A stretch of DNA of 32,519 bases, from the NCBI GenBank assembly GCA_903882645.1, contig CAIRXZ010000184.1, positions 1 to 32,519 on the forward strand, written 5' to 3'. The notes below the pieces were generated by a model. The model searched no databases. It was not told the origin of the DNA and saw only the letters and a program-made list of their open reading frames with translations. This document shows, in pieces, positions 9,707-28,426 of this stretch. How positions within the stretch are numbered: the stretch's first letter is position 1; the number at the start of each line of letters is the position of its first letter. This DNA is from an uncultured Acidobacteriia bacterium (GTDB lineage: Bacteria > Acidobacteriota > Terriglobia > Bryobacterales > Bryobacteraceae). A program made the position numbers and the translations under genes.

Positions 9707-9781
9707 GGCGCGGTAGCCAAGTGGTAAGGCAAAGGTCTGCAAAACCTTTATTCGTCGGTTCGATCCCGACCCGCGCCTCCA
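9707..9781 (+). tRNA. tRNA-Cys (anticodon GCA)
   Basis: The acceptor stem GGCGCGG (9707-9713) pairs with CCGCGCC (9771-9777). The discriminator is T, as is usual for tRNA-Cys, and CCA is encoded at 9779-9781. The anticodon stem is AAGGT/ACCTT with loop CTGCAAA, giving GCA at 9739-9741. The T-arm has GGTTCGATCC. Its 3' half (9732-9782) is the attachment site of the integrative element that follows, and the insertion has left the tRNA complete. Confidence 0.97.
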
Positions 9782-9782
9782 A
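9732..9782. repeat. attL: left attachment site of the tRNA-Cys element
   Basis: This 51 bp segment, from the anticodon stem of tRNA-Cys to just past CCA, is repeated without mismatch at 16955-17005 in the same orientation, 7223 bp away. The integrase gene begins the element right next to this copy, the usual arrangement for tRNA-targeting tyrosine recombinases. Confidence 0.93.
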
Positions 9783-9921
9783 CTAAATTGCCGCAAGCTG
9801 CTGGTTTTAGAGTTCATTCCCGTTACCGCCGCTTCACGCTGATTCCTGCCCCTTAGCGGACTTTCCTTGTGGATATGTCCGGGGTCGGACGGACAAAGGC
9901 GGGCTGCACACCGGACAATTG

Positions 9922-11055: not shown

Positions 11056-11245
11056 ATGATCTCCCGCGCTGCTCTTGGAGAAAGGCCTCCAGGTCTTCCT
11101 CAAAATAGAAAACAGACCGCCCGATGCGCATCCACACCGGCCCTTTTCTTTGGGTCCTCCAGTTGGCCAACGTAGCTTCGGACACGCCAAGCTTCGCCGC
11201 CGTCTCCGTGACGCTGAACCGCTGGGCATGAAGTAGCGAGGTCAT
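10943..11245 (-). CDS. Excisionase-like HTH protein
   Basis: A 100 aa protein. Residues 9-70 form a winged-helix excisionase/MerR-type HTH (FSVTETAAKLGVSEATLANWRT, then the basic wing and FYFEEDLEAFLQEQ). The ATG at 11245 lies two bases after the TGA of the repressor gene, so translation is probably coupled. The recognisable domain ends near residue 75; the remaining 25 residues are read within the start of the integrase gene in another frame and look unconserved. Position between repressor and integrase suggests a recombination directionality factor or int activator. A short frameshifted tail is possible. Confidence 0.8.
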   Translation of the reverse strand: MTSLLHAQRFSVTETAAKLGVSEATLANWRTQRKGPVWMRIGRSVFYFEEDLEAFLQEQRGRSYANQKTRTPLALPIHHRGAGVRGFDGITGHRSQPESR

Positions 11246-11247
11246 GG

Positions 11248-11877
11248 TCAAGACGCATCTAGCGGGCGGCTCTTCTGGCTGACACTCATCCGCCACTCCG
11301 AACCATCAGGAAGGCGCAACTCCAGATTGAAACTTTCGCCGTCCCGCTTGATCCCCGTCATTGTCACGCCCATATGTGCCAGCAGGCCGGTTATCTGCTC
11401 TAACCACGCGCGCAGCAGTGAGGCGTTTACCGTTGCCGAGAGATCGCAAGGAAGGGCGCTGGCCCCTTGCACGCGATCTCCTAATACCTCTTCGGCGCGG
11501 GGCCGCAGCCCAAACTCCCCAAGACCCCGATGACCCGTAACGGGTGTGGATTGGTCTACCCCTCCACCGCCCAGCACGTACACGATGGCACCTTCCCCAG
11601 AGGACTCCCGGCCGAAGCGTTCTCGGTACGCCACGTCCACAAGTTCCTTGAGTTCGGTTGAGCCTTCCATGAAACCGAAGGCGGCGGCAATTCGGTGAAC
11701 ATGCGGTACGATCTGCGGGGCTGGCCTTTTCCCGGTCTCGATCTTCGAGAGAAGGCCCTGATCAATGTCAATTTTGCGGGCGAGTTCGTTTAGAGTCATC
11801 CCGAGACGTTCGCGATGACTGCGAACGATACGTCCGAAATCACCCCTGGACCGTGCTCTCTCACGTTTGGCCGCCAT
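11248..11877 (-). CDS. Xre/cI-like transcriptional repressor
   Basis: A 209 aa protein with an N-terminal Xre/Cro HTH at about 15-70 (RIVRSHRERLGMTLNELARKIDIDQGLLSKIETG, written here in two parts: helix 2 is LNELARKI, helix 3 is QGLLSKIET). A linker and a C-terminal domain of unknown fold follow; no LexA-type Ser-Lys protease pair is obvious. A strong promoter lies directly upstream (11885-11914). Its -10 is only 7 bp from the ATG, and no Shine-Dalgarno is present, so the mRNA is probably leaderless, as for lambda cI from PRM. The likely role is repression of its own gene and of the element's other promoters. Confidence 0.88.
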   Translation of the reverse strand: MAAKRERARSRGDFGRIVRSHRERLGMTLNELARKIDIDQGLLSKIETGKRPAPQIVPHVHRIAAAFGFMEGSTELKELVDVAYRERFGRESSGEGAIVYVLGGGGVDQSTPVTGHRGLGEFGLRPRAEEVLGDRVQGASALPCDLSATVNASLLRAWLEQITGLLAHMGVTMTGIKRDGESFNLELRLPDGSEWRMSVSQKSRPLDAS

Positions 11878-11884
11878 GAAACTG

Positions 11885-11914
11885 AGTATATGACAATAGT
11901 CATGTCCAAGTCAA
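11885..11914 (-). promoter_or_regulatory. Repressor promoter with embedded operator
   Basis: On the minus strand TTGACT (11914-11909), 18 bp spacer, TATACT (11890-11885). The spacer contains ATGAC-TATT-GTCAT (11890-11903), a 14 bp dyad that would place a dimeric repressor between the -35 and -10. A related half pattern (CTATTGACAT) lies a little upstream near 11920-11931. Together these suggest autoregulation by the Xre-type protein. Confidence 0.72.
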
Positions 11915-11991
11915 GTCCAAATGTCAATAGTGCAGTTTTCCCTAAAACCTTGATTCCTATACCAGTTAACCCAAACTGCGATCCGCGAGTT

Positions 11992-12010
11992 ATCCCTTAA
12001 GTATCAAGAC
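11992..12010 (-). other. Candidate double-strand origin (rolling-circle nick site)
   Basis: On the minus strand the sequence reads TCTTGATACTTAAGGGATAA. CTTGATA (12008-12002) matches the conserved nick motif CTTG^ATA of the pC194/pUB110 and phiX174 replicon families, which use Rep_1-type initiators such as the one in this element. It lies in the only non-coding gap of the element, downstream of rep and primase. Assignment is by motif and context only. Confidence 0.55.
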
Positions 12011-12070
12011 AAGATGGGGAAGCGTGCGAAACGGGCCTCAAGATTCGCGTGTTTTGTGGGCCTGGACCGA

Positions 12071-12097
12071 GTAGAAACACGGGGGGCAGGTTTCTAC
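12071..12097. terminator. Hairpin at the primase stop codon
   Basis: GTAGAAAC (12071-12078) and GTTTCTAC (12090-12097) form a perfect 8 bp stem with an 11 nt G-rich loop, spanning the primase stop codon. It may end the rep-primase transcript or serve the adjacent origin. There is no T-run. Confidence 0.45.
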
Positions 12098-12930
12098 CCT
12101 TTGCGGGCTGCTGCAGCGCGTTGAGCGGTCCGTAGTGCGTAGCGCGGGCCATTCTGGCGGGCCTTGCCGCTCTCCTGCATGAGCCTGGCGGCCGTCTCGG
12201 CAATGCTCCAACCCCAATCAGTTGCGATCAGACACCACGTGAAGTCGGCGCGGCTGATATCCGGCCCGGTCCTGCTGTGGGTCGGGGGCGCACCTTCAAC
12301 GCACCGCTGATAGCTCGGCCACTTCTCGAGACCTGGGGATGTCCGCGCCGGCGTTGCATTCCGGGCGGGTATCCGTGGTTCCTCAGAGAGCAGCCCACGC
12401 TGAGCGAGCCTTTCCTTGCGGGCTATCAGGCCGGGCGCGCTGTGCTCGATTGCCACTCGCGGGAACGCGGGTGCATACTTCTCCTTGAAGTTGAGGCTTC
12501 CAGCAATGCGGGTTGCTCCACTGGCTGTTGGATCCGCTGTAGCGGCATTTCGGACGCGGCGCGCCAAGTTCTCATCGGCTTCCGCTGCCGGCATTGCGAG
12601 CCATGCCTGAAAGTTGCCAGGGCTGGTCTGCAATGCCAGGAAGGCGGCTTCCCGGACGTGCTGCAGGGCTGCGGCGGTTAGATCATCCAACTGGATGAAA
12701 ACAACACCGGGTCCGCGCGGGCGCACAATCACATTCCGTTCCAGCTCGGCCGCTCGGTCCAATTCTGCGGCTATGACGCGGCGCAAACTCTCGTAGCGCA
12801 CGGCCCTTTGAAATCCGACCTTCTGGCCTTGCCGGGTGGTGATGGTGAGGTCGAAGGTCGTTGCGCCTACGCTTCCGAATGCGTCCAGCATGGCGCCGGC
12901 TTCCTGGTGGGCGTTTGCAAGGGGTCTCAC
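12094..12930 (-). CDS. RepB-family DNA primase-like protein
   Basis: A 278 aa protein resembling the RepB/archaeo-eukaryotic primase domain of plasmid and integrative elements. VVFIQLDDL (Asp82, Asp83 in the LDD) is the expected metal-binding strand. GNFQAWLAMP and GATRIAGSLNFKEKY match the family's downstream blocks ('FQ-WL' and 'R-aG--N-K'). The C-terminal 90 residues have an RADFTWCLIATDWGWSIAETAARLM segment typical of primase-associated helical tails (given here as one continuous helix-rich region). The start is GTG 12930, which overlaps the rep stop as GTGA and has GGGGGG about 8 nt upstream. An ATG at 12978 would extend 48 nt into rep. It probably primes the lagging strand during rolling-circle replication. 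Confidence 0.78.
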   Translation of the reverse strand: MRPLANAHQEAGAMLDAFGSVGATTFDLTITTRQGQKVGFQRAVRYESLRRVIAAELDRAAELERNVIVRPRGPGVVFIQLDDLTAAALQHVREAAFLALQTSPGNFQAWLAMPAAEADENLARRVRNAATADPTASGATRIAGSLNFKEKYAPAFPRVAIEHSAPGLIARKERLAQRGLLSEEPRIPARNATPARTSPGLEKWPSYQRCVEGAPPTHSRTGPDISRADFTWCLIATDWGWSIAETAARLMQESGKARQNGPRYALRTAQRAAAARKG

Positions 12931-14024
12931 TGGATAATCCCCCCACGTCGTTTGTACCTCCGCACCGGTCGATGCCAATCAAAGTAGAACTTCGGGCTTT
13001 CATCGGCTACGCCGTCTCCGAGCAGCGTCAACTCCTCGTCGGTCTCCTGGTTCTCTCGCAGCACGCCTTTGAAGGCTCCGCCCGTCGTAATGAACTTCAG
13101 GTTATGCACTTGCCGGGTTAATTCCAGAAGCCAACTTGGATCAGCCATCATATCGGAGGGCTTCACACAGTATTTGAGGGTCTCACGCGCGGCATTCAGT
13201 AATCCTGAAAGGGTACGCTGGCCTTTCGCTGGCCTTCCACGCTTCGCTGTGACGGCTTCCACATACACGGTAGGATCGTAATCCAGCCTGAGTGATTCGC
13301 GCCAGGCCTTCAACCATTCGGCGTGCGTGACGTATTTGTCGGGCCTGCGAAAGTAATCCCCAGACACCATCATCAACGTATGGCAGTGGGGATGCGCCGA
13401 GCCATCTTCCCCGCGCGTGATCTCGACCGCTCGGAGCCAGCCGAGTACCGCCGCGAACTCCCTCCGTTTGCTTAACCGGCCCCATGCTTTACCCATTTGG
13501 GCGCACGTCCCGCGCAGTTCATTGACTGCGACATTTCGGAGAGTCAGCGTAAGGAAAAGGAACCGCGCCTTCGGGTATTCATCAAGAACGTGAGGCAGCG
13601 CTTGCAGAAATCGGGCGATCCACATCAGTGACCGCCGCCACTGGCAAACTGGGCAATGGCGCACCCGGCAAAAGTAGGCCTTTTGCAATTTCGGAGTGAG
13701 CACGCTCGAATCGTCTTTCTCAAATACCCACGCGAATTCCAGGACCGGCGAGCAGAGGTTCATCCGTTCGCCCAAACGCGAAAACCAGACAGAGCTACGC
13801 GCCCTTGAATAGATGGCCGCGACATCATCCGCCTGGCTTCGGTGTTCGTCCCAGGGCCGATCCTTCGGGCTACAGTCGGACAGGTACTCCGGCTCAGCGA
13901 TAGCGGGTTGACCGGGGCCAGCAGGAAGAACGGGCGGGCCAGGCTCTTCAAGCGCATACTGAGGGTTCTGCTTGTGCTCGATTCCGTGATCTGGTAAACT
14001 GTTGCTGTCCGATGTCAGTAGCAT
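12927..14024 (-). CDS. rep: Rolling-circle replication initiator (HUH, Rep_1 type)
   Basis: A 365 aa Rep of the pC194/pUB110 type. A Cys cluster CRVRHCPVCQWRR (Cys119, Cys124, Cys127) precedes the three HUH motifs: motif 1 FLFLTLTLRN (155-164), motif 2 HPHCHTLMMV with His211, His213 and His215 for metal binding, and motif 3 KYCVKPSD with candidate nucleophile Tyr285 and Lys288. The first 75 residues are Pro-rich and unlike the core. AGGTGA lies 6 nt before the ATG. A 9 bp GC hairpin (14042-14072) sits just ahead of that site and could control its translation. The enzyme would nick the origin and start rolling-circle copying; it may also act as a relaxase, as many HUH proteins do. Confidence 0.93.
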   Translation of the reverse strand: MLLTSDSNSLPDHGIEHKQNPQYALEEPGPPVLPAGPGQPAIAEPEYLSDCSPKDRPWDEHRSQADDVAAIYSRARSSVWFSRLGERMNLCSPVLEFAWVFEKDDSSVLTPKLQKAYFCRVRHCPVCQWRRSLMWIARFLQALPHVLDEYPKARFLFLTLTLRNVAVNELRGTCAQMGKAWGRLSKRREFAAVLGWLRAVEITRGEDGSAHPHCHTLMMVSGDYFRRPDKYVTHAEWLKAWRESLRLDYDPTVYVEAVTAKRGRPAKGQRTLSGLLNAARETLKYCVKPSDMMADPSWLLELTRQVHNLKFITTGGAFKGVLRENQETDEELTLLGDGVADESPKFYFDWHRPVRRYKRRGGIIQ

Positions 14025-14041
14025 CGGTCACCTATCTCAAG

Positions 14042-14072
14042 GCGGCGCCGCTTCTCCCCGAATCGGCGCCGC
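14042..14072 (-). promoter_or_regulatory. GC hairpin before rep
   Basis: GCGGCGCCG (14042-14050) and CGGCGCCGC (14064-14072) form a perfect 9 bp stem with a 13 nt loop between the 61 aa gene and the rep Shine-Dalgarno. It could act as an attenuator or as a control of Rep dosage; the role is inferred from position only. Confidence 0.45.
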
Positions 14073-14086
14073 TGCTCTTTTCAGCC

Positions 14087-14272
14087 TTACAATTCGCACC
14101 GCCAGGACGCTACAGAGTCCGCCCAGTTATCGAACTCCAGTTCCCGAAGCGTCGTACCCTGCCGTTCGAGAATTTGCAGGGCGGCCAGTTTCACACGTGG
14201 ATCTGTACTGCGTTCCGCCTCTTGGATCATCTGACGGACGGACATGAGGTAGTTAGAGATCCACCGGGGCAT
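14087..14272 (-). CDS. Small unknown protein of the element (61 aa)
   Basis: 61 aa, with AAGGA about 7 nt before the ATG at 14272. It is predicted mostly helical (VRQMIQEAERSTDPRVKLAALQILERQGTTL is amphipathic; quoted here only to mark residues 12-42). It has no recognised family, no membrane helix and no cysteine motif except one C near the end. It lies between the 69 aa acidic protein and rep in an unbroken minus-strand run, so it is likely co-expressed with rep. A copy-control or packaging role is possible, but nothing shows it. Confidence 0.6.
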   Translation of the reverse strand: MPRWISNYLMSVRQMIQEAERSTDPRVKLAALQILERQGTTLRELEFDNWADSVASWRCEL

Positions 14273-14314
14273 GGCGTTTCCTTGCGCGGCCGTGGTGCGT
14301 GCGGGCGGGCGGCG

Positions 14315-14524
14315 TCAGTCTTCCTCTTCTTCGCCGTTGCCGTTGCCCCCCTCTTCTTCCTCTTCTTCACCGCTCAACAGGTCGAGGGCCTGGCTCACGG
14401 CGTCAACGAGATCGGCCCGGGTTGCCTCCGGGGTGTACGCGTCCTCCAAAAGCGCCACGGCGTCGCCAACGCTGTCCTGGAGCTCGTCGAGATCCGCTTG
14501 AACTTCCTTCATGCTTCGTGCCAT
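14315..14524 (-). CDS. Small acidic helical protein (69 aa)
   Basis: 69 aa from the ATG at 14524, which has a perfect GGAGG 9 nt upstream; the longer in-frame start at 14569 lacks one. Residues 1-45 are a heptad-like helix (VQADLDELQDSVGDAVALLEDA), and the tail is a run of Glu broken by GNGN (SGEEEEEE ... GEEEED). Such acidic tails occur in DNA-mimic and chaperone-like proteins, but no function can be assigned. Confidence 0.72.
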   Translation of the reverse strand: MARSMKEVQADLDELQDSVGDAVALLEDAYTPEATRADLVDAVSQALDLLSGEEEEEEGGNGNGEEEED

Positions 14525-14544
14525 TTCAGAAACCTCCAGGAAGA

Positions 14545-15054
14545 TCATGCACCAGAATCGATCTGACAATTGCGAGTCGGTAATTGTTTACCTGACAATT
14601 GCGGATCGGTAATTGTCAGCTTCGGGGCACGGAGACCCTGCCCCTGGCCCTCGGGCGCTTCTTCGGGAGGTTTCAAAATCGGCCGGCGCGATGTTGATTT
14701 TCGCCGTCCCTCAGATCCCGCGTTTTTCTTCTCGCGGCTCTCCCTCTGGTGAATTGCCGCCATCAACCGACGTTGTTCTAAGCCGCGCCTCCAAGCCGCC
14801 AAATGCTTATACCCAACGATGAACCTCCTGAATAATTTGACCCCGCGCACTCCGGCCTTGTACTGCGCGTGTGCGCGGTCAATGCGCCGGTCTCTCCTCT
14901 TTCCAGGCGTCCCAGGCGTCCGCTTGGAAACGATCAGCCGGTGGACCGCAAGCGCTACTTTGCGACGCATGGCCCGAGCGAGACCCGCTTTATCTACAGC
15001 CAGCCGCAGCCGGTCTATTGCCGCCGCAACCGATTTGGGTATGCCCGCGTTCAT
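14545..15054 (-). CDS. Basic unknown protein of the element (169 aa)
   Basis: 169 aa, strongly basic (many RR and KR pairs), with ATG 15054 overlapping the stop of the 76 aa gene as ATGA. Residues 1-45 are a helical region (SVAAAIDRLRLAVDKAGLARAM). The rest is Arg/Lys-rich with low complexity and a Pro-rich section near 125-140. The last 20 residues are encoded by the tandem hairpin repeat at 14563-14619, so this tail may be a by-product of a DNA site rather than functional protein. A nucleic-acid-binding role would fit its charge; no family is recognised. Confidence 0.65.
   Translation of the reverse strand: MNAGIPKSVAAAIDRLRLAVDKAGLARAMRRKVALAVHRLIVSKRTPGTPGKRRDRRIDRAHAQYKAGVRGVKLFRRFIVGYKHLAAWRRGLEQRRLMAAIHQRESREKKNAGSEGRRKSTSRRPILKPPEEAPEGQGQGLRAPKLTITDPQLSGKQLPTRNCQIDSGA
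14563..14619. repeat. Two tandem 25 bp repeats, each an inverted repeat
   Basis: Copies at 14563-14587 and 14592-14616 (period 29) agree at 23 of 25 positions. Each carries ACAATT ... AATTGT. Copy two, with the next three bases, is a perfect 9 bp inverted repeat CTGACAATT/AATTGTCAG around a 10 nt centre (14592-14619). The same GACAATTG word lies in a GACAATTGTC palindrome at 9914-9923, at the end of the integrase gene. They may be binding sites for an element protein, such as iterons or arm sites. Confidence 0.7.
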
Positions 15055-15281
15055 CGTCGTTTGCGCCTCCCGTGCCGATCATCAGAAGGCCCAAGGAAAA
15101 AAACAACGAGGCCAGCCAGAGCGCAGCCGTAGAGTAAGAGCTTGCGAGGCTCCATCGCTGCCACTCTGGCCAGACCTTGAGCGATCAGCTCAGCGGTTGC
15201 CTCGGGCCAGGCAGTGAACCGAAGCTCCCCATCGGGAAACCTCACCGGGAAGAGATCCACGCTTTTTTCACTGGCCGTCAA
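15051..15281 (-). CDS. Small membrane protein of the element (76 aa)
   Basis: 76 aa, with ATG 15281 overlapping the stop of the upstream 481 aa gene as ATGA, and its own stop overlapping the next start the same way. It has a soluble N-terminal 45 residues (FPVRFPDGELRFTAWPEA), one transmembrane helix at about 48-65 (LLLYGCALAGLVVFFLG) and a short basic tail (DDRHGRRKRR). The topology is probably N-out or N-in with the basic end cytosolic. No family is recognised. Confidence 0.7.
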   Translation of the reverse strand: MTASEKSVDLFPVRFPDGELRFTAWPEATAELIAQGLARVAAMEPRKLLLYGCALAGLVVFFLGPSDDRHGRRKRR

Positions 15282-16723
15282 AGTTCGATAACCTCGGCTT
15301 CGCTGGCTTCCGATTCAGGCTCATCATCCGCAGCCGGTTGCCATTCAACAAAACCTTCAACAAACTCCTGGAATTTGGCTTCCATCGGGGCAAGCGTTGC
15401 CCAAAACGGAGAGTGCCGGTACAAATCAACGATGGCCCCCGCGCCGATCCCTTGTAGAAGTTTCAAGTCTTCGAGGCCCCATCCATCGCACACATAAGCC
15501 GCAAACTCCGCGCCCTGTTTCGCGGGCGGCACATCTGCGAGCAACCAGCGCAACATAACCGGAGTAATCTGGGCCGCTAGAGCTATGATTTGCGGCTGCG
15601 GTACTGACGGCGGTGCGGTGGCGGCCGAACGCGCGGCGTCTGGCTGGCCGTCCGGCGGAGCGGTGGCCGGCGGAGCGGGGGGCGGCTGTGGCTGCTGAGT
15701 TCGAGCGGGCGCGGCCGGCGCCCCCGCTGCGTTTCCGGCCTTGGATGCTGCCCACATCTCCATGCCGATGCGCAATGGATCACGAATCAGGGTCGCGATC
15801 TCGTGTACAATCGCGGAAACCGCAGCCAAATTTCCGCCTTCCTCCGTCACGATCGAGGCAGCGCTTTGTGAGGGCCGCAACTTGTCGGCCAGGGTCAAGA
15901 CCTTATCGACATAGGTCAACGGGTCATCCGGTTCGGATTTTGCCTGGGTAAGTGCAGGTTGCGGCTGCAATTTCTTGAGGATCTCCGCTGCTCGGTCAAG
16001 GGCAGTAAGAGCATCAACCGCTGCAACTTTGCCGTCTGCGGGCTGTAATTTCTTGAGTAAGTCCACAGCGGCGGACAAAGTGGCTATCGGGTCGCCGGCT
16101 GATGGCTGCGCGGTCAGACCCGCCAGCTTTTCCGCGAGGGCGTCTCTTCCTTGCGCCATGCCCAAAAGCAGCGTGTCGCTCACTTCGGTCTTGGGTTTCC
16201 GCATCGCCTCGCGTGCGATTTCAGCCACTACCGCACTCGCGCCGTTTTCCGATCCGGTTGTGGTGGCGTCGGATTTCTTTTTCCACCTCAGAAACGGTTC
16301 GTTTTCCGGGCAGTCAACAATCAGGGCCGGATCAATCGACGGGGGTTTATTCGGGTCGTAAACAGAAAACAGGTGAGTGGCGACGGTCTTCCGCAGTTTC
16401 TTATCGTTCAACCGAGCGTGGTACTGGCCGCTGCCATAGTTCGCCAACACTGACGATTCATCGAAGCTTGAGTTGAGCCGCGCTATGTGATGCCGGTCAC
16501 CTGGAAGGCTGATCTTGGGGGCCGTCTGGTATAGGTAGACCACGTAACGGCTCTCCCATTCGGCGTCAGTGATAGCCGCGATCCGATCAAAGAAGAAGCC
16601 GTCGCTGGCTTCTGGTGTTGGTGCTTCTGCCGACGGCTCCGATTCCACCGGCAACGGTTCCGCCGATGTCGGCTCCTCGGCGGTTGCCAGTTTTTCCTGA
16701 TTGTGTTTGGTTGGGCGTTTCAT
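15278..16723 (-). CDS. Large unknown protein of the element (481 aa)
   Basis: 481 aa from ATG 16723 (GGAG 12 nt upstream). It has four zones. Residues 1-42 are disordered and rich in E, P and A. Residues 43-150 are a compact domain with conserved-looking aromatics (GFFFDRIAAITDAEWESRY, VVYLYQ, NYGSGQYHARL, VYDPNKPPSIDP). Residues 160-330 are helical with recurring KKLQP/DKLRP repeats (three copies about 35-45 residues apart). A Pro/Ala/Gln-rich linker leads to a C-terminal globular domain of about 90 residues ending in acidic EAEVIEL. No enzymatic motif or membrane helix is seen. It is the first gene of the operon. It could be structural, scaffolding or transfer-related, but this is not shown. 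Confidence 0.82.
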   Translation of the reverse strand: MKRPTKHNQEKLATAEEPTSAEPLPVESEPSAEAPTPEASDGFFFDRIAAITDAEWESRYVVYLYQTAPKISLPGDRHHIARLNSSFDESSVLANYGSGQYHARLNDKKLRKTVATHLFSVYDPNKPPSIDPALIVDCPENEPFLRWKKKSDATTTGSENGASAVVAEIAREAMRKPKTEVSDTLLLGMAQGRDALAEKLAGLTAQPSAGDPIATLSAAVDLLKKLQPADGKVAAVDALTALDRAAEILKKLQPQPALTQAKSEPDDPLTYVDKVLTLADKLRPSQSAASIVTEEGGNLAAVSAIVHEIATLIRDPLRIGMEMWAASKAGNAAGAPAAPARTQQPQPPPAPPATAPPDGQPDAARSAATAPPSVPQPQIIALAAQITPVMLRWLLADVPPAKQGAEFAAYVCDGWGLEDLKLLQGIGAGAIVDLYRHSPFWATLAPMEAKFQEFVEGFVEWQPAADDEPESEASEAEVIEL

Positions 16724-16954
16724 CGTTTCGATGACTCCGGTACCGCTACGGTACTGTACTGTACACACGCCTGATGCGCGGGCGTGACTCTGGAGACGGG
16801 GTAGGCGTCCACCCTGTTCTTGTACGGTTCACGCGTGCGACGCGCGGGGTGCGATCCGGGAATCGCTGGCTCCGCTGCTACACGCGGCTTTGTGTCAAAC
16901 TGGACATTAAACCGGACGCTTGGGCATAATGGCTTTTGAACTGAAGAGGCTTGC
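16724..16954. promoter_or_regulatory. Element leader region with GTAC repeats
   Basis: This non-coding region lies between the first gene of the element and attR. Within 16740-16764 GTAC occurs four times. The first two form a perfect inverted repeat GTACCG-CTA-CGGTAC (16740-16754), followed by two copies at 5 bp spacing. Placed 17-41 bp before the start codon, it is a candidate operator. TTGACA occurs on the minus strand further upstream, but no matching -10 is clear. Confidence 0.45.
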
Positions 16955-17005
16955 AAGGTCTGCAAAACCTTTATTCGTCGGTTCGATCCCGACCCGCGCC
17001 TCCAA
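16955..17005. repeat. attR: right attachment site (displaced tRNA-Cys 3' half)
   Basis: An exact 51 bp copy of 9732-9782. It contains the anticodon arm and T-arm of tRNA-Cys but no D-arm or 5' acceptor strand, so it cannot yield a tRNA. It marks the far end of the element; the PIN gene stop lies 9 bp beyond. Confidence 0.93.
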
Positions 17006-21645: not shown

Positions 21646-22019
21646 GTGGAAATCCTCCGCGAGTTCATACTACCAGACCTCGATCGGCGTCCGCGCCGGC
21701 GTTCTTCCGCCGGGTTCGCCTCGGCCGTCGGGTCGCAGGAATTCGAATGGCTTGCATCTATGCCGCTATGCGGCCAGGCGCTTTCGCTTGCTACCGGAGT
21801 TTCTACCTTCTCAGCCGCTCGCCGCGCCTCGATGCCAGGATCGCCGCGTCGCGTCGGTTCGCGCCTGCCGCGCAATCCCAAGCCCCGTCAGGGGCGCGAG
21901 AAGATAGCCCAGGGCGCAAGCCCTGTGGAACCCGTCCGGATACACGCCAGCCCCGTAGGGGCGTAAGACACACCGTTATGTCCGGTCATCGATCGCCCGC
22001 TGGGAAGCCGTTTCCTTCC
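21646..22019. repeat. Gene-free region with hairpins
   Basis: 374 bp between the oxidoreductase and DinB genes. Three compact stem-loops are clear: GCCCC-GTCA-GGGGC (21882-21895), AGGGC-GCAA-GCCCT (21911-21924) and GCCCC-GTA-GGGGC (21950-21962). No gene or convincing promoter was found. Confidence 0.55.
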
Positions 22020-22550: not shown

Positions 22551-22592
22551 GCCGGGCCATTGTACTACGAGGACCGGCGCTGGTTCCGTGAC

Positions 22593-22765
22593 GCTGATGG
22601 CTGAAGGCTTCCTTCAGTTCTCCGTCGGCGTCTTCTCCAGATGATCGATCACCAGCACGTCGATCGGCGCCTTGCGGGGCTCCAGCCTCAGCCCAAGCTG
22701 CTGCACCGCCGCGAAAATCGAGGATGACCCCGAAGGGTCGGACGCCGCGTCGGCCGGCCGCCCCG
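22593..22765. repeat. Left copy of 173 bp direct repeat flanking the DGR
   Basis: Matches 27371-27543 in the same orientation with four mismatches, 4778 bp apart. It contains the 3' end of a TIGR03435 gene, its stop codon and two heptamers of a CTGANGG tandem repeat. The whole DGR cassette lies between the two copies. Confidence 0.9.
22614..22765 (-). pseudogene. 3' remnant of a TIGR03435-family gene
   Basis: Only the last 50 or so codons remain (PADAASDPSGSSSIF ... VIDHLEKTPTEN), nearly identical to the end of the full TIGR03435 gene at 27392-28360. Upstream of 22765 the similarity stops abruptly. A short frame from ATG 22867 (MKTRNARRFLAITALI) looks like a signal-peptide start in another frame and may be the 5' relic of the same gene, but that is weak. 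Confidence 0.8.
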
Positions 22766-23072
22766 GCGGGAATCGGGCTTTCCGCCGCGCTGTCTGGAAA
22801 CCTGAGCCCGGTCGGTGATGATAAGGGCTGTTATCGCCAGGAACCGCCGGGCGTTGCGAGTCTTCATGCCTTTGGAGCCAAGCCTGTGCCGAACCCGGGC
22901 TGACGTTCGCCTGGAGGCTACCGGAAAACCCGGGTCCGCTTGCTGTTTGACGCCCTTGACGCCGGCGTCGGGATCGACGGCCCGGAAACGGAGTTGGCGC
23001 CCCCGGAATCTCCGTGGAGGAAACCGGCTCCGGCCCGCGGACCTCGGAACCGCTGAGGCCCCGCTCCGCATA
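22766..23072. other. Spacer between TIGR03435 remnant and template repeat
   Basis: 307 bp without a convincing gene. The minus strand is open across it in continuation of the TR reading frame, but the translated product has no recognisable feature beyond the TR itself. This position, downstream of TR, may be transcribed as part of the DGR template RNA. Confidence 0.5.
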
Positions 23073-23179
23073 CCCGGCGCAACGAAACCCGATGTTGTTG
23101 TTCCGGTTCGTTGGCTCGTTCCTGTTACGGTTCGAGACGCGGACGTTCTGTGGATTGTTGTTCCACGAACCCCCGCGCA
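23073..23179 (-). repeat. DGR template repeat (TR)
   Basis: 107 bp matching the VR at 24164-24270. The minus (sense) strand is rich in AAC codons (reads [14 protein letters not shown] then [13 protein letters not shown]). All 15 differences from VR fall on its 29 adenines; the 78 other bases are identical. Homology may extend to 23183, adding three more adenine-only differences. The A-free 3' end GGGTTTCGTTGCGCCGGG (23090-23073) would be the IMH-like end. The TR overlaps the last 55 bp of the RT frame. Confidence 0.93.
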
Positions 23180-23945
23180 TTTCGGCCGTGTTCCGCTGCC
23201 TTCAGGATAAACTGTCCGAACAGGTTCTGCCGAAGCCGCCATGTGTCGCCGAAGGCGGCATGGCCTATCCAGGCCCGCACCCGGCACTGCACTTGCTCGA
23301 ACCGCAATCGCCCCGCATGGTAAAGAGCCGCCATCTTCCTGAGCCGCCGTCTCATGCGTACCGCGTTGGGGCGCGCCAGCCGCATCTGTCCCGGCAGAAT
23401 CCGCCAACCCAACAGCGTCACTCCCTCGTTGCAACAATAAATCTGGAATTTGCGCTCGTGCGGGACCAAACGCAGGCGATCGAGGAACTCCCGAATCCGC
23501 TCCGCCATGCAAACCAATTCCCGCCGGTCGTCGCCGAAGAGAACGAAATCGTCCACGTATCGGAGATACAAGGCCGGCCGCAATTCCCGCAACGCGAAAT
23601 GGTCGAGCGGATTCAGATAGACGTTCGCGAAAAACTGGGACGTTTGATTTCCGATCGGCAGTCCGCGCCGCCTCTCGAATGGCGTGAACAGTGAGTCGCC
23701 CGGAAAGTACGCCGTCGCTTCCTCCTGTTCGTTCGACGCGTCGATGATCAGCCCCGCCAGATCCAGAGTCCTCCGGCACTTGATCGCTCGCGCGATCAGG
23801 TCCTTCAAGATCGCGTGGTCGATCGATGGGAAATACTTCCGGATGTCGCACTTCAGGACGTAGCGGCGCCGCCGGCAAGCCTCCCGCGCCAGGCTCAGCG
23901 CCCGATGCTGGCCGAATCCCTTGCGCGATGCGAACGAGAAATCAG
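23125..23945 (-). pseudogene. DGR reverse transcriptase, 5'-truncated
   Basis: About 272 codons of a DGR-type reverse transcriptase. Present: '[14 protein letters not shown]' (the SYACRKGKG block of the family), catalytic Asp in [17 protein letters not shown], the DGR-specific IGNQTSQ (23655-23635) in place of the QG-SP of other RTs, catalytic YVDD (23559-23548), and the later motifs [11 protein letters not shown] and GVTLLGWRI. Missing: the N-terminal 100 or so residues with fingers motifs 1 and 2. Upstream of about 23945 the sequence becomes avd in another frame. The frame runs open to ATG 24039, but that extension is avd DNA out of frame. The 3' end overlaps TR and stops at TAA 23127-23125. 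It is likely inactive unless complemented. Confidence 0.88.
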
Positions 23946-24131
23946 CAGTTCGATCGACGCCGCAACCAGGTTCTGACCGAGCGAGAACCGGTACGACTTC
24001 GGGAACTTCTCCACCTTGGGAAAGACCCAAAGCGCCCAATCATAGGCTTTCTGTACGACTACCGCCGGTTCCGTCGAATGGCTCAAAAAATTCCCCCCAG
24101 GGGGGAAGTGTCCCCCCTGGACCCCCCTCAT
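23937..24131 (-). pseudogene. avd: avd fragment (DGR accessory variability determinant), 3' half missing
   Basis: The protein frame gives [19 protein letters not shown], then [22 protein letters not shown], which is the N-terminal half of Avd-type four-helix-bundle proteins of the S23-like group that deliver template RNA to the DGR RT. After about 23940 the Avd similarity stops and the RT similarity begins in another frame, so about 70 residues of Avd are lost. ATG 24131 overlaps the stop of the target gene (ATGA); a TTG at 24086 after GGGGGG is an alternative start. The frame closes at a TGA near 23895. Confidence 0.82.
24097..24120. promoter_or_regulatory. GC hairpin downstream of VR
   Basis: CCAGGGGGG (24097-24105) and CCCCCCTGG (24112-24120) form a perfect 9 bp stem with a 6 nt loop, 44 bp past the VR 3' end and just after the target stop codon. 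DGRs such as that of phage BPP-1 need a hairpin/cruciform just downstream of VR for homing. In the transcript it is followed by GGGGAATTTTTT, so it could also act as a terminator. Confidence 0.6.
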
Positions 24132-27082
24132 AAACTCAAAACACTAAACTCCAAACTTAATTCCCCGGCGCAACGAAACCCGAAGTTGTAGTACCGGATC
24201 GACGGCCCGAGCCTGATACGGTACGAGACGCGGACGAGCAGTGGAATGTTGTTCCACGAACCCCCGCGCAACACTTTTGAATCTCCAACCTTGGGACCGC
24301 CGGGGTTGTCTCGATTCTCAGCTTCATAAGGGCCGTACCAGTCTCCGCACCATTCCCAAACGTTGCCCAGCATGTCGCACAACCCCTCCGAAGTATCACC
24401 CTTTGGATACAAGCCTACCGGCGTTGGATGCCCAACCGCCTTATCGTGATAGTAGTTTGCGCGCGAGGGGTCGAGCGGCGGTTCATTTCCCCATGGATAC
24501 CTGCCGCCCTCCGGACCTCTCGCCGCCCGTTCCCACTCCGCTTCCGTCGGCAATCGGCCTTTCGCCCATGCGCAGTAAGCGGCCGCTTCGAACCAACTGA
24601 CGCCCACCACCGGCCGGTTCGGATAGCCCTTCTGCCGCTCCCAGTCCTCGGGCGCCTCGAACTTGCCGTAGCCTTCCACCCAGTACTTTCGCGCCGAGTA
24701 GCCCCTGCCCTTCACGAACACGTCGAATTCCTGCACCGTCACTGGGTACCGCCTGATCCGGAACCCCCGCAGCGTCACGTCGTGCACCGGGGACTCGTCG
24801 TCGTATGCCTCCTTGTCGTAGTTCCGGCCTTCCTCGCTCGCTTTCTGCGCTCCCATGTGGAAGGTCCCCGGCGGAATCGCGACCCAGTTATCCTCGTCCA
24901 GCCGCGGGTCGCCCACTTGACCCAGCAAGTCCGCGGCTTCGATTCGTTTCCCGATTTCGATCTTTTCCGCCTCGCCGGTCTCGAAGATTCCCATCACTGC
25001 CTTTACGGTCCGCTCGTAGTCCGGCGTTTTCGGCGTGTACTTCATGCGCGAGAGGTCCCGCATCATCGCGCTGAGCAGCGCGGCGCATCGCACCTGGTCC
25101 GCCAGAGCGGGCCGTGCTCCGAGTCCGCCCAGGATCGCCTGGAAGAGTCCTTCGATTTTGGCCTCGCCTTGCAGGCGCAGCACCCCGCCCAGCAGGCGCA
25201 TGGTCTCGCGCCACTCCGGCTGGTAGAGTTTGCCGCTCCGCACCACCCGCTCGATCTGCTGCTCTTCGCCCAGGCTGGCGATTTCGCGCGCGGCCAGGTA
25301 TTCCTGGAAACTCAAATGCCAGAACTTCAGGTCGCCGCCGTCGGATGAGATGATGCCGGTCTCCTGGGTTTCGCGCTCCAGCAGTTCCTCGTTTTCGTCC
25401 ACGCTCCCGCCAAACTCCCTGGAGAAAAGCTCCGCGGCCGCTCGCTTGCTCATCTGCACGCGGCGTCCGCCACTGGCGTCTTGCAGGCTGAGGGCCAGCT
25501 TGCGCATGGATTCCAGGCATTTCTCGGCGGAGGGGCGGCCTTCCATGTGCTCGTGCGCCATGGCCAGCCACCGCAAAATGTTCTCGTACAACTCCACGCG
25601 ATATTCCGGCAGCCGCTGGTCGTTGTGTTGCAACACGGCCAGCGCCGTCAGCATCACCGGATTCCCCGCCATCTCGCGGATCTCCGGGCGGCTCGCCAGC
25701 GCCGTTTCCAGCCCGTTTTCGAAACTCTTCGCTTCGGCCTCGCTCAGCGCCAGAGCGCGCGTGAAGTGCTGGAAGAAACTCCGGATTTCGGGGGCTTCCA
25801 ACTCCCCGATGCGGACGGGCTGGAAGTCCGCGAGCACGGCATCCCCCACGTTGGTTTGCGGCCGCGTGCTCACCAGGAAATCGCACTTGGGGAAGGCCCG
25901 CGTGGCATGTTCGAACAGCCGGGCCATCCGCTCCCGCATCCGGCGTCCCGGCGCTTCGTCCAGGCCGTCCACCATTACGAGGCAACCGCCGCGCTCCAGC
26001 CGTTGGGCGAGAAACGCCTCGTCCAAGCCCCACCGGTACTCCCCGCTCCGCTTGCCCAGGAAATACGGAATCCAGTCCGGGGAATCGTCCTGCCTGCCCG
26101 ATTTGTCCGCCGCCAGGAACTTCACGAGGTCCGCGACGCGGATGAGGATCGGGAATCGCCGGTCGTCCGGCGTCAGAAACGGCGGCGATCCCTCCGGTCG
26201 AGTCCCGCGGAGATTGCGGCACAGCTCGAAAGCCACCCGCCGCAGAAACGTCGACTTGCCCGACCCGGGGTCGCCCACGATCACCACCCTGCGGGAGGAC
26301 GCCGCCTCTTCGAGCGTCACGCGCCGCTGTTCCATTTCCTGGACTGCGCCCTTGCCGCGCGCGTCCCGGCTCGCCAGGGTCGTCAGAGGGATGTATATCT
26401 CGTCGATTCCGAAGACATACGGTTCCGCCCGCTTGGTCCTCAAGCCCCTGATGCGGATCTGCCGCGTATCGTCTTCGAGCGCCCGCAAATAGGCGTCGGG
26501 GTCGCGGTGTTGTCCCGCTGCCATCGCCGGTTGATGCCGCAGGCGCCACTCGAACAGAGCGGCGGAAACCACCGGCCGCACGCTGGCGGCATCCGTGAAC
26601 GTAGCGCGGATATGGCGGCTCAGTTCCTTCTTGAACTGTTCCAGCTTCTCCTCGTTCCGCTTCACCTCTTCGACGACCCCGAGGTATTCGGCCGTCGGTT
26701 TGTTTCTCTCCTTGACCAGGCGAAAGTTCTCGGAGAGTTCCGGCGGCCAGGCGTAGTTTGGGTCCACCAGAAACGCCAGCACTTCCTTCTTGGTCACGTG
26801 CCGCGCGTGATCGCATTCCAGCCACGTAATGCTCTTGGCGTCGGGGTTCTTGGGGCCGCCCGGAACCCACCCGTAGCGGTGCGCCACCAAAACCACCACG
26901 ACCTCGGCTTCCGCCACCTTCTCCAGGCAAGCCTCCAGAGCCGGCGCGTGTCCGCTCGCCGGGAAGTACTCCATCATGCGCGGCGAAAATCCGCTGGCCA
27001 GGGCAGCCTTGGCGGCCTGCTCCCGGTGCTCCTTCAAATCGTCTGAGGTGGAAGAAATGAAGACAACTGGATCGTGGGCCAT
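24128..27082 (-). CDS. DGR target: DUF4062-NACHT-FGE protein with variable C-terminus
   Basis: 984 aa. Residues 5-115 are a DUF4062 domain (VVFISSTSDDLKEHREQA, VVVVLVAHRYGWVP, SITWLECDHA). A coil follows (130-160). Residues 260-420 are a NACHT-type STAND NTPase with Walker A GDPGSGKST (270-278), Walker B LVMVDGLDEA (368-377) and a sensor-like FLVSTRP. Helical repeats (420-725) contain FWHLSFQEYLAARE. Residues 731-973 are a formylglycine-generating-enzyme/sulfatase-modifying fold, a C-type-lectin-like scaffold used by many DGR targets (PPGTFHMG, RLPTEAEWERAARG, DMLGNVWEWCGDWYG, LRGGSW, FGFRCAG). The VR encodes 939-973. The layout suggests a sensor whose ligand-binding face is diversified and whose N-terminus signals, as in biological-conflict NTPases. 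It is probably cytosolic, with no signal peptide. Confidence 0.93.
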   Translation of the reverse strand: MAHDPVVFISSTSDDLKEHREQAAKAALASGFSPRMMEYFPASGHAPALEACLEKVAEAEVVVVLVAHRYGWVPGGPKNPDAKSITWLECDHARHVTKKEVLAFLVDPNYAWPPELSENFRLVKERNKPTAEYLGVVEEVKRNEEKLEQFKKELSRHIRATFTDAASVRPVVSAALFEWRLRHQPAMAAGQHRDPDAYLRALEDDTRQIRIRGLRTKRAEPYVFGIDEIYIPLTTLASRDARGKGAVQEMEQRRVTLEEAASSRRVVIVGDPGSGKSTFLRRVAFELCRNLRGTRPEGSPPFLTPDDRRFPILIRVADLVKFLAADKSGRQDDSPDWIPYFLGKRSGEYRWGLDEAFLAQRLERGGCLVMVDGLDEAPGRRMRERMARLFEHATRAFPKCDFLVSTRPQTNVGDAVLADFQPVRIGELEAPEIRSFFQHFTRALALSEAEAKSFENGLETALASRPEIREMAGNPVMLTALAVLQHNDQRLPEYRVELYENILRWLAMAHEHMEGRPSAEKCLESMRKLALSLQDASGGRRVQMSKRAAAELFSREFGGSVDENEELLERETQETGIISSDGGDLKFWHLSFQEYLAAREIASLGEEQQIERVVRSGKLYQPEWRETMRLLGGVLRLQGEAKIEGLFQAILGGLGARPALADQVRCAALLSAMMRDLSRMKYTPKTPDYERTVKAVMGIFETGEAEKIEIGKRIEAADLLGQVGDPRLDEDNWVAIPPGTFHMGAQKASEEGRNYDKEAYDDESPVHDVTLRGFRIRRYPVTVQEFDVFVKGRGYSARKYWVEGYGKFEAPEDWERQKGYPNRPVVGVSWFEAAAYCAWAKGRLPTEAEWERAARGPEGGRYPWGNEPPLDPSRANYYHDKAVGHPTPVGLYPKGDTSEGLCDMLGNVWEWCGDWYGPYEAENRDNPGGPKVGDSKVLRGGSWNNIPLLVRVSYRIRLGPSIRYYNFGFRCAGELSLEFSVLSL
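24164..24270 (-). repeat. DGR variable repeat (VR)
   Basis: 107 bp at the 3' end of the target gene, differing from TR (23073-23179) at 15 sites, all opposite TR adenines. Twelve residues change: 946, 948, 949, 954, 956, 958, 959, 961, 962, 964, 965 and 967 (mostly Asn in TR to Ile, Leu or Tyr). Pro960 changes silently. The variable residues lie on the last strands of the lectin-like fold, where ligand contact is expected. Confidence 0.95.
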
Positions 27083-27391
27083 TGCACCGCCAATTCTAGC
27101 CCAAAAAGGCCGCTCCCTATCCGTAGGCCAATGCCCACGCCGCGAAATTCGTGTTGTCTTGGCAAGAGTACTCGGGCTGCATTACGCCGGTGCGCAGCAG
27201 TTCGCGCGTTCCTCCGCTCCCTCCGCGCGCGAACTCCGGGAACAACGCAATCCCGACTCACCAACCGATCCTTTCCGGACGGTTTTCTCCGCGCCTCGGC
27301 GTCTCGGCGGTAAGCTCTTGGCTTCCTCCGCCTCCCCGCGTCTCCGCGTGCTGAAAGCTGAAGGCTGACGGCTGATGGCTGAAGGCTTCCT
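27083..27391. other. Region upstream of the DGR target, with heptamer repeat
   Basis: 309 bp without a gene. The last part (27351-27385) is five tandem copies of a CTGANGG heptamer, running into the 173 bp repeat. The section at 27280-27350 is C/T-rich and repetitive (CCTCCGCCTCC, CGTCTCCGCG). No clear promoter for the target gene was found. Confidence 0.5.
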
Positions 27392-27543
27392 TCAGTTCTC
27401 CGTCGGCGTCTTCTCCAGATGATCGATCACCAGCACGTCGATCGGCGCCTTGCGCGGCTCGAGCTTCAGCCCAAGTTGCTGCACCGCCGCGAAAATCGAG
27501 GATGACCCCGAAGGGTCGGACGCCGCGTCGGCCGGCCGCCCCG
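27371..27543. repeat. Right copy of 173 bp direct repeat flanking the DGR
   Basis: Same orientation as 22593-22765 and about 98% identical by eye. This copy is the native 3' end of the intact TIGR03435 gene, so it is probably the parental copy, and the left one is a duplicate or recombination scar. Confidence 0.9.
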
Positions 27544-28360
27544 CGTCCCCGCCCGCGCTTCGCGCTTGTACGACGCCTATGCCCGCCGTCCTCGCCATGT
27601 TTATCAAGTCCGCCTGAGTCACATCGAGCGCCACCTGGTAACTCCCTGTCAGCTCCGTCATGTCCACCACCGGGCGGTCCACCAGCCGCGTCAGCAAATC
27701 GGCCAGCGCCGGAAGCGTGGTTTTGTCGGCTTCCACCCGCATCGCGCCTTCCGGCGTCACCACAATCCGCGTCTTCCCGCCCAGTCCGCCTGTGACCACC
27801 ATGCCCTTGCCCTGGAGGTTGCCGCTGATCTTCACTTCCTCATTCCCGACGCTGATGGCGACGCCGTCTTTGGGCGCCTCGCCTGCCGCCGCCGGCTCGT
27901 CCGGCGGCGGTTCCTTCAGCTTCGGCCCGCCCTTCCCCACCACCAGGGCGTACACCGGGTGGTCCGTGAACGAGCGATGCAGCGCCAGCTTGAACCGTTC
28001 CGCCAGCAGCCCTTGCAGCATCTCCGGGATCTGCTCGGTGGTCGCGCCCTCCGGCAATTTGGCCTGTATGTCGAACCTCGCGCCGCCCATCCAGTCCGGT
28101 CCCGACACTTGGTGCGGTTTCACTTTGTAGGCCGCGCACACCAGGTCCATCAGCGACATGCTCCCGATATCCACCCGCGCCGCGTTGGTCTTCATGCCTA
28201 TGCGCATCTGGCCCGACAGAATCATGCGCGCGTCGAGCGGCGCGGCCGGCTTCACCGACGCCACTTCAAACGCCGGCCTGGCCGCCGGAGCCTGGCCCGA
28301 AGCCACGCCCCCCGCGAGCGCCAGTCCGACGGCAATTCTCCTCAGAAGACAATTAGGCAT
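27392..28360 (-). CDS. TIGR03435-family secreted protein
   Basis: 322 aa from ATG 28360; a TTG-initiated extension to 28405 lacks support. Signal peptide: LLRRIAVGLALAGGVASGQA. The body is the TIGR03435 pattern: FEVASVKPAAP, then MSLMDLVCAAYKVKPHQVSGPDW, FDIQAKLPEGAT, EQIPEMLQGLLAERFKLALHR, HPVYALVVGKGGPKLKE. The C-terminal repeat of the domain ends IFAAVQQLGLKLEPRKAPIDVLVIDH. This family is expanded in Solibacter-type acidobacteria; its function is unknown, and some members are fused to BlaR1-type sensors. Its 3' end is duplicated on the far side of the DGR. Confidence 0.92.
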   Translation of the reverse strand: MPNCLLRRIAVGLALAGGVASGQAPAARPAFEVASVKPAAPLDARMILSGQMRIGMKTNAARVDIGSMSLMDLVCAAYKVKPHQVSGPDWMGGARFDIQAKLPEGATTEQIPEMLQGLLAERFKLALHRSFTDHPVYALVVGKGGPKLKEPPPDEPAAAGEAPKDGVAISVGNEEVKISGNLQGKGMVVTGGLGGKTRIVVTPEGAMRVEADKTTLPALADLLTRLVDRPVVDMTELTGSYQVALDVTQADLINMARTAGIGVVQARSAGGDAGRPADAASDPSGSSSIFAAVQQLGLKLEPRKAPIDVLVIDHLEKTPTEN

Positions 28361-28398
28361 ACCCTTTAGACTGCGTGCGGAAGCCAGTTTTAGCGTAC

Positions 28399-28426
28399 TT
28401 GCCAATTCTCATAATCATGCTATACT
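28399..28426 (+). promoter_or_regulatory. Promoter of the metY-cysK operon
   Basis: TTGCCA (28399-28404), 16 bp spacer, TATACT (28421-28426). The roughly 145 nt leader that follows holds a GGCGTCCGC/GCGGATGCC stem-loop (about 28458-28490). No known SAM or T-box riboswitch pattern was recognised in it. Confidence 0.6.

What the first reader, a model, noticed from the sequence alone, without database searches (positions are those of the whole stretch)
23073..24270. Diversity-generating retroelement with a clean adenine-mutagenesis signature
TR (23073-23179) and VR (24164-24270) align without gaps over 107 bp. Counted by hand, 15 differences occur and all fall on adenines of the TR sense strand (15 of 29 A positions; 0 of 78 other positions). 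If the alignment is taken four bases further, three more A-only changes appear. Direct evidence plus the known DGR mechanism make this close to certain. The changes replace 12 residues, mostly Asn by Ile, Leu or Tyr, in the C-type-lectin-like end of the target.
Basis: partly seen in the sequence, partly recalled or inferred. Interest (0 to 1): 0.92.

Follow-up and report, generated by a model that had tools for sequence, protein, structure and literature searches.

The report
Broken mutation cassette beside immune-receptor gene
A soil bacterium carries an immune-receptor-like gene whose sensing tip was rewritten by a targeted-mutation retroelement, but a deletion has since removed part of that machinery, so the receptor is probably frozen in its last version unless related machinery elsewhere in the genome still serves it.

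Summary
TR (23073-23183) and VR (24164-24274) align without gaps over 111 nt with 18 differences, all at TR adenines (18 of 32 A; 0 of 79 other positions). The locus is a diversity-generating retroelement (DGR) in an unnamed, probably Bryobacterales, genome. TR, a covarying TR/spacer RNA, VR and a VR-downstream hairpin remain. The target (984 aa) is NLR-like: DUF4062 (TIR-like NADase family), NACHT, then an FGE/C-type-lectin domain holding the VR. Most likely the DGR diversified this receptor and was disabled recently, leaving a fixed variant. Rescue in trans by one of four other DGR loci of the genome is not excluded. DGR-diversified NACHT-lectin receptors and degenerate DGRs are already described; the DUF4062 pairing, the structured RNA and repeated RT lesions in this lineage are the new parts.

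The parts
24128..27082 (-). DGR target gene, 984 aa: DUF4062 (residues 7-93), NACHT (264-441), FGE-sulfatase domain (731-972)
   Evidence: Pfam E-values 9.7e-20, 3.6e-8 and 6.3e-58; dN/dS outside the VR 0.16-0.22 against four related targets
24164..24274 (-). Variable repeat (VR), 111 nt, at the 3' end of the target gene
   Evidence: 18 of 32 TR-A positions differ, 0 of 79 others
24097..24120 (-). Hairpin downstream of VR, 10-bp perfect stem and 4-nt loop (CCAGGGGGGA-CACT-TCCCCCCTGG)
   Evidence: a perfect stem of 7 bp or more with a 3-4 nt loop follows 13 of 14 VRs examined; no shuffled control was run
23895..24086 (-). 5' fragment of avd (about 49 codons from a presumed TTG start, then 14 out-of-frame codons and a stop)
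   Evidence: NF033474 Avd 6.2e-7, positions 3-41 of 104, below cut-off; bAvd 8.2e-5, below cut-off; reading frame
23941..23943 (-). Deletion joint, GAT shared by both sides
   Evidence: Read by eye, located; the two sides lie 485-525 bp apart in four related loci (512 in G049C49, 513 in G109)
23125..23943 (-). RT remnant: catalytic part kept, N-terminal ~100 residues (fingers) lost; not in frame with the avd fragment. The mechanical ORF runs to 24039.
   Evidence: RVT_1 profile positions 39-205 only; C358 and C313 RTs match only from residues 100 and 105 on
23073..23183 (-). Template repeat (TR), 111 nt; the RT frame runs into it, as in related loci
22889..23093 (-). TR 3' end plus spacer: conserved structured RNA
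   Evidence: 24 of 51 pairs with changes on both sides in 11 sequences, 0 of 500 shuffles as high; no Rfam match; model R1
22589..22765 (.). Direct-repeat copy of the 3' end of the TIGR03435 gene, on the far side of the cassette
   Evidence: 97% identical to 27366-27543 (alignment)
27366..27543. The other copy of that repeat, inside and just after the complete TIGR03435 gene (27392-28405, minus)
27134..27349 (.). Dispersed repeat just upstream of the target gene
   Evidence: 34 other places in this genome among the 45 matches returned (only 40 of 244 candidates were scored)

Best explanation
A DGR locus whose target is an NLR-like receptor. Shown by sequence: the VR at the C-terminus of a DUF4062-NACHT-FGE protein was written from the adjacent TR with adenine-specific errors, and avd and RT are joined and truncated by a deletion of about 0.5 kb. 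Inferred: the FGE/lectin surface senses an invader's ligand, NACHT oligomerises, and DUF4062 depletes NAD+ to abort infection; the loss of Avd and RT was recent and leaves the receptor fixed in its last written specificity.
For: A-only differences, p = 1.0e-10, 0 of 79 non-A changes over 111 nt. Domain matches. Truncation of avd and RT, while six of 20 fetched related loci and four other loci of this genome keep avd and RT frames open. Hairpin after 13 of 14 VRs. Covarying TR/spacer RNA. In 13 related targets mean residue entropy is 2.17 bits at the 20 codons with a TR adenine against 0.41 at the other 17 VR codons. DUF4062 stretch matches TEP1 11gz (1.3e-4) and KpSwz 10wc (0.037); FGE domain matches Treponema denticola variable protein 1, 2y3c, at 1.1e-12. 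Recent loss: no non-A TR/VR difference here, against 2, 1 and 2 in the three other lesioned loci with a detected pair.
Against: No activity, ligand or NADase evidence. E89 lies in a stretch shared by 10 of 13 related targets, but that it is the catalytic Glu was not established. The model of the N-terminal region is modest (pLDDT 66.8); 7 of its 9 best Foldseek matches are TIR-containing, the other two are an EF-Tu complex and WrbA. Four other DGR loci could act in trans. The assembly cannot be checked against reads.
Confidence: 0.72

Rival explanations
1. The locus is still diversified in trans: Avd and RT from another DGR locus of the same genome (C358, C313, C293 or C277) use this locus's intact TR RNA and target.
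For: Those four loci have avd and RT frames without stops; C358, C313 and C293 carry the same class of TR/spacer RNA; TR, spacer, VR and hairpin are intact here; trans use is inferred for some loci of Thiohalocapsa PB-PSB1 (PMC10907252, Results read).
Against: RT identity to the remnant is only 47-60% for C277, C313 and C358; no other TR of the genome can be the template (13 of 62, 17 of 61, 25 of 66 and 26 of 82 non-A mismatches), so it would need cross-recognition of this locus's RNA. C277 has no match to the RNA model.
Confidence: 0.2
2. The deletion is an assembly error or a minority variant, and the cassette is intact in most cells.
For: The genome is a 366-contig assembly and no reads are available. 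In Thiohalocapsa, intact and disrupted variants of one DGR locus coexist (PMC10907252, Results read).
Against: A 3-nt joint is unlikely to mislead an assembler (inference). Other loci show other lesions: G094 has a deletion with different ends.
Confidence: 0.12
3. TR and VR are an ordinary duplication that diverged by chance or selection, without a DGR.
For: Large direct repeats do occur around the locus.
Against: p = 1.0e-10; the same A-biased pattern at the 12 other loci with a detected pair; avd, RT, hairpin and spacer RNA beside it.
Confidence: 0.01

Closest known systems
DGRs of Thiohalocapsa sp. PB-PSB1 and relatives that diversify STAND/NACHT sensors (PMC10907252; abstract, all of Results and part 1 of 2 of Discussion read)
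   Same: DGR-diversified C-terminal lectin/FGE domain on a NACHT or STAND protein, several DGR loci per genome, degenerate loci with broken RT, repeats shaping the loci, N-terminal effectors including TIR
   Different: N-terminal DUF4062; acidobacterial lineage; lesion is a microhomology deletion rather than a transposon or MITE-like array; RT clade not determined here
Bordetella phage BPP-1 DGR (PMC3240598 and PMC12875486; passages read)
   Same: TR/VR with A-specific changes, Avd, RT, spacer RNA after TR, hairpin after VR
   Different: Cellular NLR-like target instead of a phage tropism protein; TR lies after RT here; 3-4 nt loops here do not follow the GRNA consensus in every case (window loop CACT); avd and RT broken
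Swarozyc (KpSwz) and human TEP1, DUF4062 TIR-like NADases (PMC13174449; abstract, part 1 of 2 of Results and passages read)
   Same: DUF4062 domain; DUF4062 next to NACHT as in TEP1, NWD1, NWD2 and NPHP3
   Different: C-terminal part is a DGR-written FGE domain, not the KpSwz auxiliary domain or WD40 repeats; NADase activity untested
Remote or orphan DGR targets of cyanobacteria (PMC7517822; passages read)
   Same: Target kept without nearby machinery; [quoted passage not shown]
   Different: Here the deletion scar, the avd and RT remnants and the intact TR are still visible

Membership tests
Diversity-generating retroelement | TR/VR pair with differences confined to TR adenines | tested here: met
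   18 of 32 A, 0 of 79 others
Diversity-generating retroelement | Intact error-prone RT gene | tested here: not met
   RT remnant lacks about the first 100 residues and is out of frame with what precedes it; so it is a degenerate DGR, not a complete one
Diversity-generating retroelement | Intact accessory protein Avd | tested here: not met
   Only positions 3-41 of 104 match
Diversity-generating retroelement | VR at the 3' end of a gene for a C-type-lectin-fold protein | tested here: met
   FGE domain 731-972 of 984; structure matches
Diversity-generating retroelement | Hairpin-forming inverted repeat downstream of VR | tested here: met
   10-bp stem, 4-nt loop, 43 nt after VR; no shuffled control
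Diversity-generating retroelement | Structured RNA downstream of TR | tested here: met
   the structure was predicted on the same alignment that was counted
Diversity-generating retroelement | Retrohoming activity | not testable with these tools
   Needs reads or a bench assay
DGRs with STAND/NACHT targets (clade 5, PMC10907252) | NACHT or other STAND NTPase joined to a DGR-diversified lectin domain | tested here: met
DGRs with STAND/NACHT targets (clade 5, PMC10907252) | RT falls in clade 5 | not tested
   No tree with the published clades was built
DUF4062 TIR-like NADase | DUF4062 domain | tested here: met
   71 bits against a cut-off of 24.7
DUF4062 TIR-like NADase | Conserved catalytic Glu | tested here: inconclusive
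   E89 is invariant in 6 aligned sequences and in a stretch shared by 10 of 13 related targets, but the alignment to KpSwz stops before it
DUF4062 TIR-like NADase | NAD+ hydrolysis | not testable with these tools
   Needs an enzyme assay

The most novel reading that the evidence does not exclude
Bryobacterales soil bacteria keep modular repertoires of DGR-rewritten NLR-like receptors on a NACHT-FGE chassis with exchangeable effectors (TIR-like DUF4062 here; SIR2-like, a NACHT N-terminal helical domain and a calcineurin-like phosphoesterase at other loci of this genome). Once a useful specificity is found the writer is lost, repeatedly, and the receptor becomes heritable: a bacterial counterpart of a somatically tuned receptor turned germline.
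Probability: 0.3. Interest if true: 0.78.

Novelty: new member of a known kind. Interest (0 to 1): 0.5.

Why it matters
It joins a TIR-like family recently reported to include NAD+-depleting antiphage proteins (DUF4062, PMC13174449) to a DGR-diversified sensor, with the DUF4062-NACHT neighbourhood of human TEP1, NWD1, NWD2 and NPHP3. RT lesions at several loci that keep target and TR make 'diversify, then fix' testable, and the covarying TR/spacer RNA gives a handle for finding such loci and for testing cross-talk between loci of one genome.

Tried and rejected
Templating by another TR of the genome: rejected; non-A mismatches against the window's VR are 13 of 62 (C358), 17 of 61 (C313), 25 of 66 (C293) and 26 of 82 (C277), against 0 of 79 for its own TR.

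Known RNA family for the spacer: none. The one match at E up to 1 is PhotoRC-I at 15.2 bits (gathering score 45), at 22726-22741, outside the spacer.

Empty site in the same genus: not shown. In G002 the flanking genes lie on different contigs, and no DinB or target match was found in the three stretches fetched.

PADLOC: best model for the target is mad8, 6.3e-7, over the NTPase stretch. NCBIfam gives the target only matches below cut-off, among them antiphage EruA 5.2e-8.

Phage origin of the RT: 96 phage records match, all below 60% identity, the best-ranked at 38.7%; five are Bordetella records. Not pursued. No RT tree was built.

Literature: of the 10 papers listed none holds both 'diversity-generating retroelement' and 'DUF4062'. 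The library is open-access PMC; no supplement was read. Searches listed only 15 of 1,153 and 20 of 218 papers. PMC10053308 was only searched for six domain or taxon terms, with no occurrence. PMC3521204 was seen in a listing only. The cryo-EM paper on the BPP-1 ribonucleoprotein, that 8ub7 is its RT, that 2y3c is a DGR target, and the DGR RT motif in LPIGNQTSQ are recalled, not seen.
Full report
CHECK. The repeat pair is real. The repeat finder returns 23073-23179 and 24164-24270 as one family, 107 nt, 86% identical. On the minus strand the alignment has no gaps and 15 differences, all at TR adenines: 15 of 29 A, 0 of 78 others, hypergeometric p = 1.0e-10. Four bases further (111 nt) it is 18 of 32 A and 0 of 79 others.

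TARGET. The VR ends a 984-aa ORF (27082-24128, minus) with Pfam DUF4062 at 7-93 (9.7e-20), NACHT at 264-441 (3.6e-8) and FGE-sulfatase at 731-972 (6.3e-58). DUF4062 is reported as a TIR-like NADase family active in antiphage defence (PMC13174449; abstract, part 1 of 2 of Results and passages read). The window's N-terminal stretch matches TEP1 11gz (1.3e-4) and KpSwz 10wc (0.037) by sequence. A modest model of residues 1-240 (mean pLDDT 66.8, six sequences) gives nine Foldseek matches at E up to 0.001: seven hold TIR domains, two do not (an EF-Tu complex, WrbA); TM-scores are low, 0.31-0.43 by query. The FGE model (pLDDT 87.3) matches formylglycine-generating enzymes best, and by sequence the domain also matches Treponema denticola variable protein 1 (2y3c, 1.1e-12). 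Outside the VR, dN/dS is 0.16-0.22 against four related targets.

MACHINERY. The RT-like ORF (24039-23125) is a remnant. RVT_1 matches from profile position 39 of 205, and the C358 and C313 RTs match only from residues 100 and 105 on. Upstream, in another frame, lies the start of avd (NF033474, 6.2e-7, positions 3-41 of 104, below cut-off because it is a fragment). In an alignment with seven loci that carry the whole region (C358, C313, G109, G049C49, G086, G147, G008), the window lacks the end of avd and the start of RT (the aligner misplaced the window's avd piece, and I read the joint by eye). The joint is GAT at 23943-23941; the two sides lie 512 and 513 bp apart in G049C49 and G109, and 485 and 525 in G147 and G086. 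The avd and RT frames differ, so no fused enzyme can be read. That the RT frame runs into TR is shared with related loci. Against three loci where the comparison covers 246 codons (G109, G086, C358) the RT remnant has dN/dS 0.12-0.23, as after a long functional past; a fourth, G151, aligned over 47 codons only and gave 0.61.

OTHER LOCI OF THE GENOME. The genome (366 contigs) has four more DGR loci, C358, C313, C293 and C277, with avd and RT matches free of stops. Their TR/VR pairs show 21, 19, 20, 25 and 20 A differences and 0, 1, 0, 0 and 0 others (C277 has two VRs). Pfam on targets: C313 Metallophos-NACHT-FGE; C277 SIR2-like-NACHT-FGE and NNH2 (0.2 bits below cut-off)-NACHT-FGE; C358 FGE only. 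The window's VR fits only its own TR, so another template is excluded; another locus's RT is not.

RELATED LOCI. One search examined 25 loci: the window's, four of this genome and twenty from other genomes. RT match over most of its length, without stop or frame change: 10 (C358, C313, C293, C277, G109, G086, G151, G008, G006C520, G018); all ten also have avd open, three with a stop only before the start codon. Lesion: 6 (C184 and G094 deletions, G015 internal loss with frame change, G049C49 frameshift, G081 frameshift and loss, G147 in-frame stop at residue 28). Cut by a contig start, with one stop near the end: 1 (G022). No RT found: 8 (G079C43, G085, G049C321, G108, G125, G006C79, G007C4, and G123, whose contig ends inside avd). 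Some lesions may be assembly errors. Non-A TR/VR differences are 0, 1, 0, 0, 0, 1, 1, 0, 0, 0 in the ten pairs of nine loci with open RT, and 0 (window), 2, 1, 2 in four lesioned loci; G018, G015 and G081 gave no pair. The scan penalises non-A mismatches and breaks at indels, so these are lower bounds. The numbers are small, but fit drift after loss elsewhere and recent loss here.

HYPERVARIABILITY. In 13 related targets, codons that carry A in the window's TR have mean residue entropy 2.17 bits (20 codons), against 0.41 for the other 17 VR codons and 1.16 in the 60 residues before (Mann-Whitney p = 1e-6). Five of the 13 have no RT in the fetched stretch. Ten of 13 show the SITWLEC stretch of DUF4062; G147 and G123 align to the window only from about residue 192 on and G151 differs there, which suggests exchange of the N-terminal module. 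The TR could encode about 10^17 variants without creating a stop.

SIGNALS IN DNA AND RNA. A perfect stem of 7 bp or more with a 3-4 nt loop follows 13 of 14 VRs, 32-75 nt downstream, with differing sequences; G147 is imperfect (no shuffled control; hairpins of 7 bp or more also follow 4 of 13 TRs: C277, G109, G151, G008). BPP-1 needs such a structure for target recognition, and phage DGR loops there follow GRNA (PMC3240598, passages read); the window's loop, CACT, does not. Downstream of TR, 11 sequences share a structure that pairs the TR 3' end with the spacer: 91.9% of cells paired (shuffles 80.4%), 24 of 51 pairs changed on both sides (15.9), covariation 0.385 (0.186), each 0 of 500 shuffles as high; further pair types 53 (45.9), 3 of 500; slid versions reach at most 51.8% and 0.137. 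The structure was predicted on the same alignment, which favours it. C293 and C277 were left out of the 13 TR loci; C277 lacks the GGTAG...GCGAA word that follows the other 12 TRs. Rfam has no match there. Model R1, from the 3' half of 11 sequences, finds the window, C358, C313 and, weakly, C293 (33.4 bits, not a training sequence) in this genome, and a match in 28 of 150 family genomes, training sequences included.

HOW IT GOT HERE. The 3' end of a complete TIGR03435 gene (27392-28405) is repeated on the far side of the cassette (177 bp, 97%), and a dispersed repeat lies just upstream of the target. Seven targets at 66-77% identity over more than 850 residues lie in other genera of the family, while the three other genomes of the genus have only weaker matches (best E 6.7e-29). 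This fits acquisition as a unit; the empty site could not be shown.

MECHANISM. Shown by sequence: A-specific rewriting of the VR from this TR, and truncation of avd and RT. Inferred from homology: FGE surface as sensor, NACHT as switch, DUF4062 as NAD+-depleting effector. Inferred from pattern: the receptor is now fixed. Trans rescue stays open at about 0.2, an assembly or minority variant at about 0.12.

KNOWN OR NEW. DGR-diversified NACHT/STAND-lectin receptors, several loci per genome, degenerate loci and trans use are described (PMC10907252), and removal of machinery after selection of a variant has been suggested (PMC7517822, passages read). New as far as the searches reached (open-access papers, partly capped lists): the DUF4062 pairing, the acidobacterial TR/spacer RNA, and RT lesions at several loci of this lineage.

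Noticed in passing
L030 (C358), L031 (C313) and L032 (C293), VR regions: VRs with frame-changing indels against their TRs: -1 nt in C358, +1 nt in C313, net -5 nt in the second VR of C293 (alignment ambiguous). They shift the target's C-terminus out of frame; the next retrohoming could restore it, which would amount to on/off switching.
   Followed up: partly
window 9707-17005: A 51-nt perfect direct repeat (9732-9782, the 3' part of a tRNA-Cys gene at 9707-9781, and 16955-17005) encloses an integrase gene (9922-11229), a helix-turn-helix gene, a RepB-like primase and a Rep_1 replication gene: an integrated mobile element of about 7.2 kb.
   Followed up: partly
L033 (C277): One TR serves two VRs, in a SIR2-like-NACHT-FGE and an NNH2-NACHT-FGE protein, and a truncated second copy of the avd start (about 8031-8272) follows the second target.
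   Followed up: partly
L032 (C293): The DGR lies near FGE-only genes, an Hsp70-like gene and an AAA ATPase gene, recalling the multi-gene conflict systems described for other DGRs.
   Followed up: no
window 21875-21968 and 27134-27349: Two dispersed repeat families with many copies in this genome.
   Followed up: no
L078 (G094C73), about 3350-3958: An independent avd-RT deletion that, unlike the window's, leaves avd and the RT C-terminal part in the same reading frame; whether a fused protein is made was not examined.
   Followed up: no
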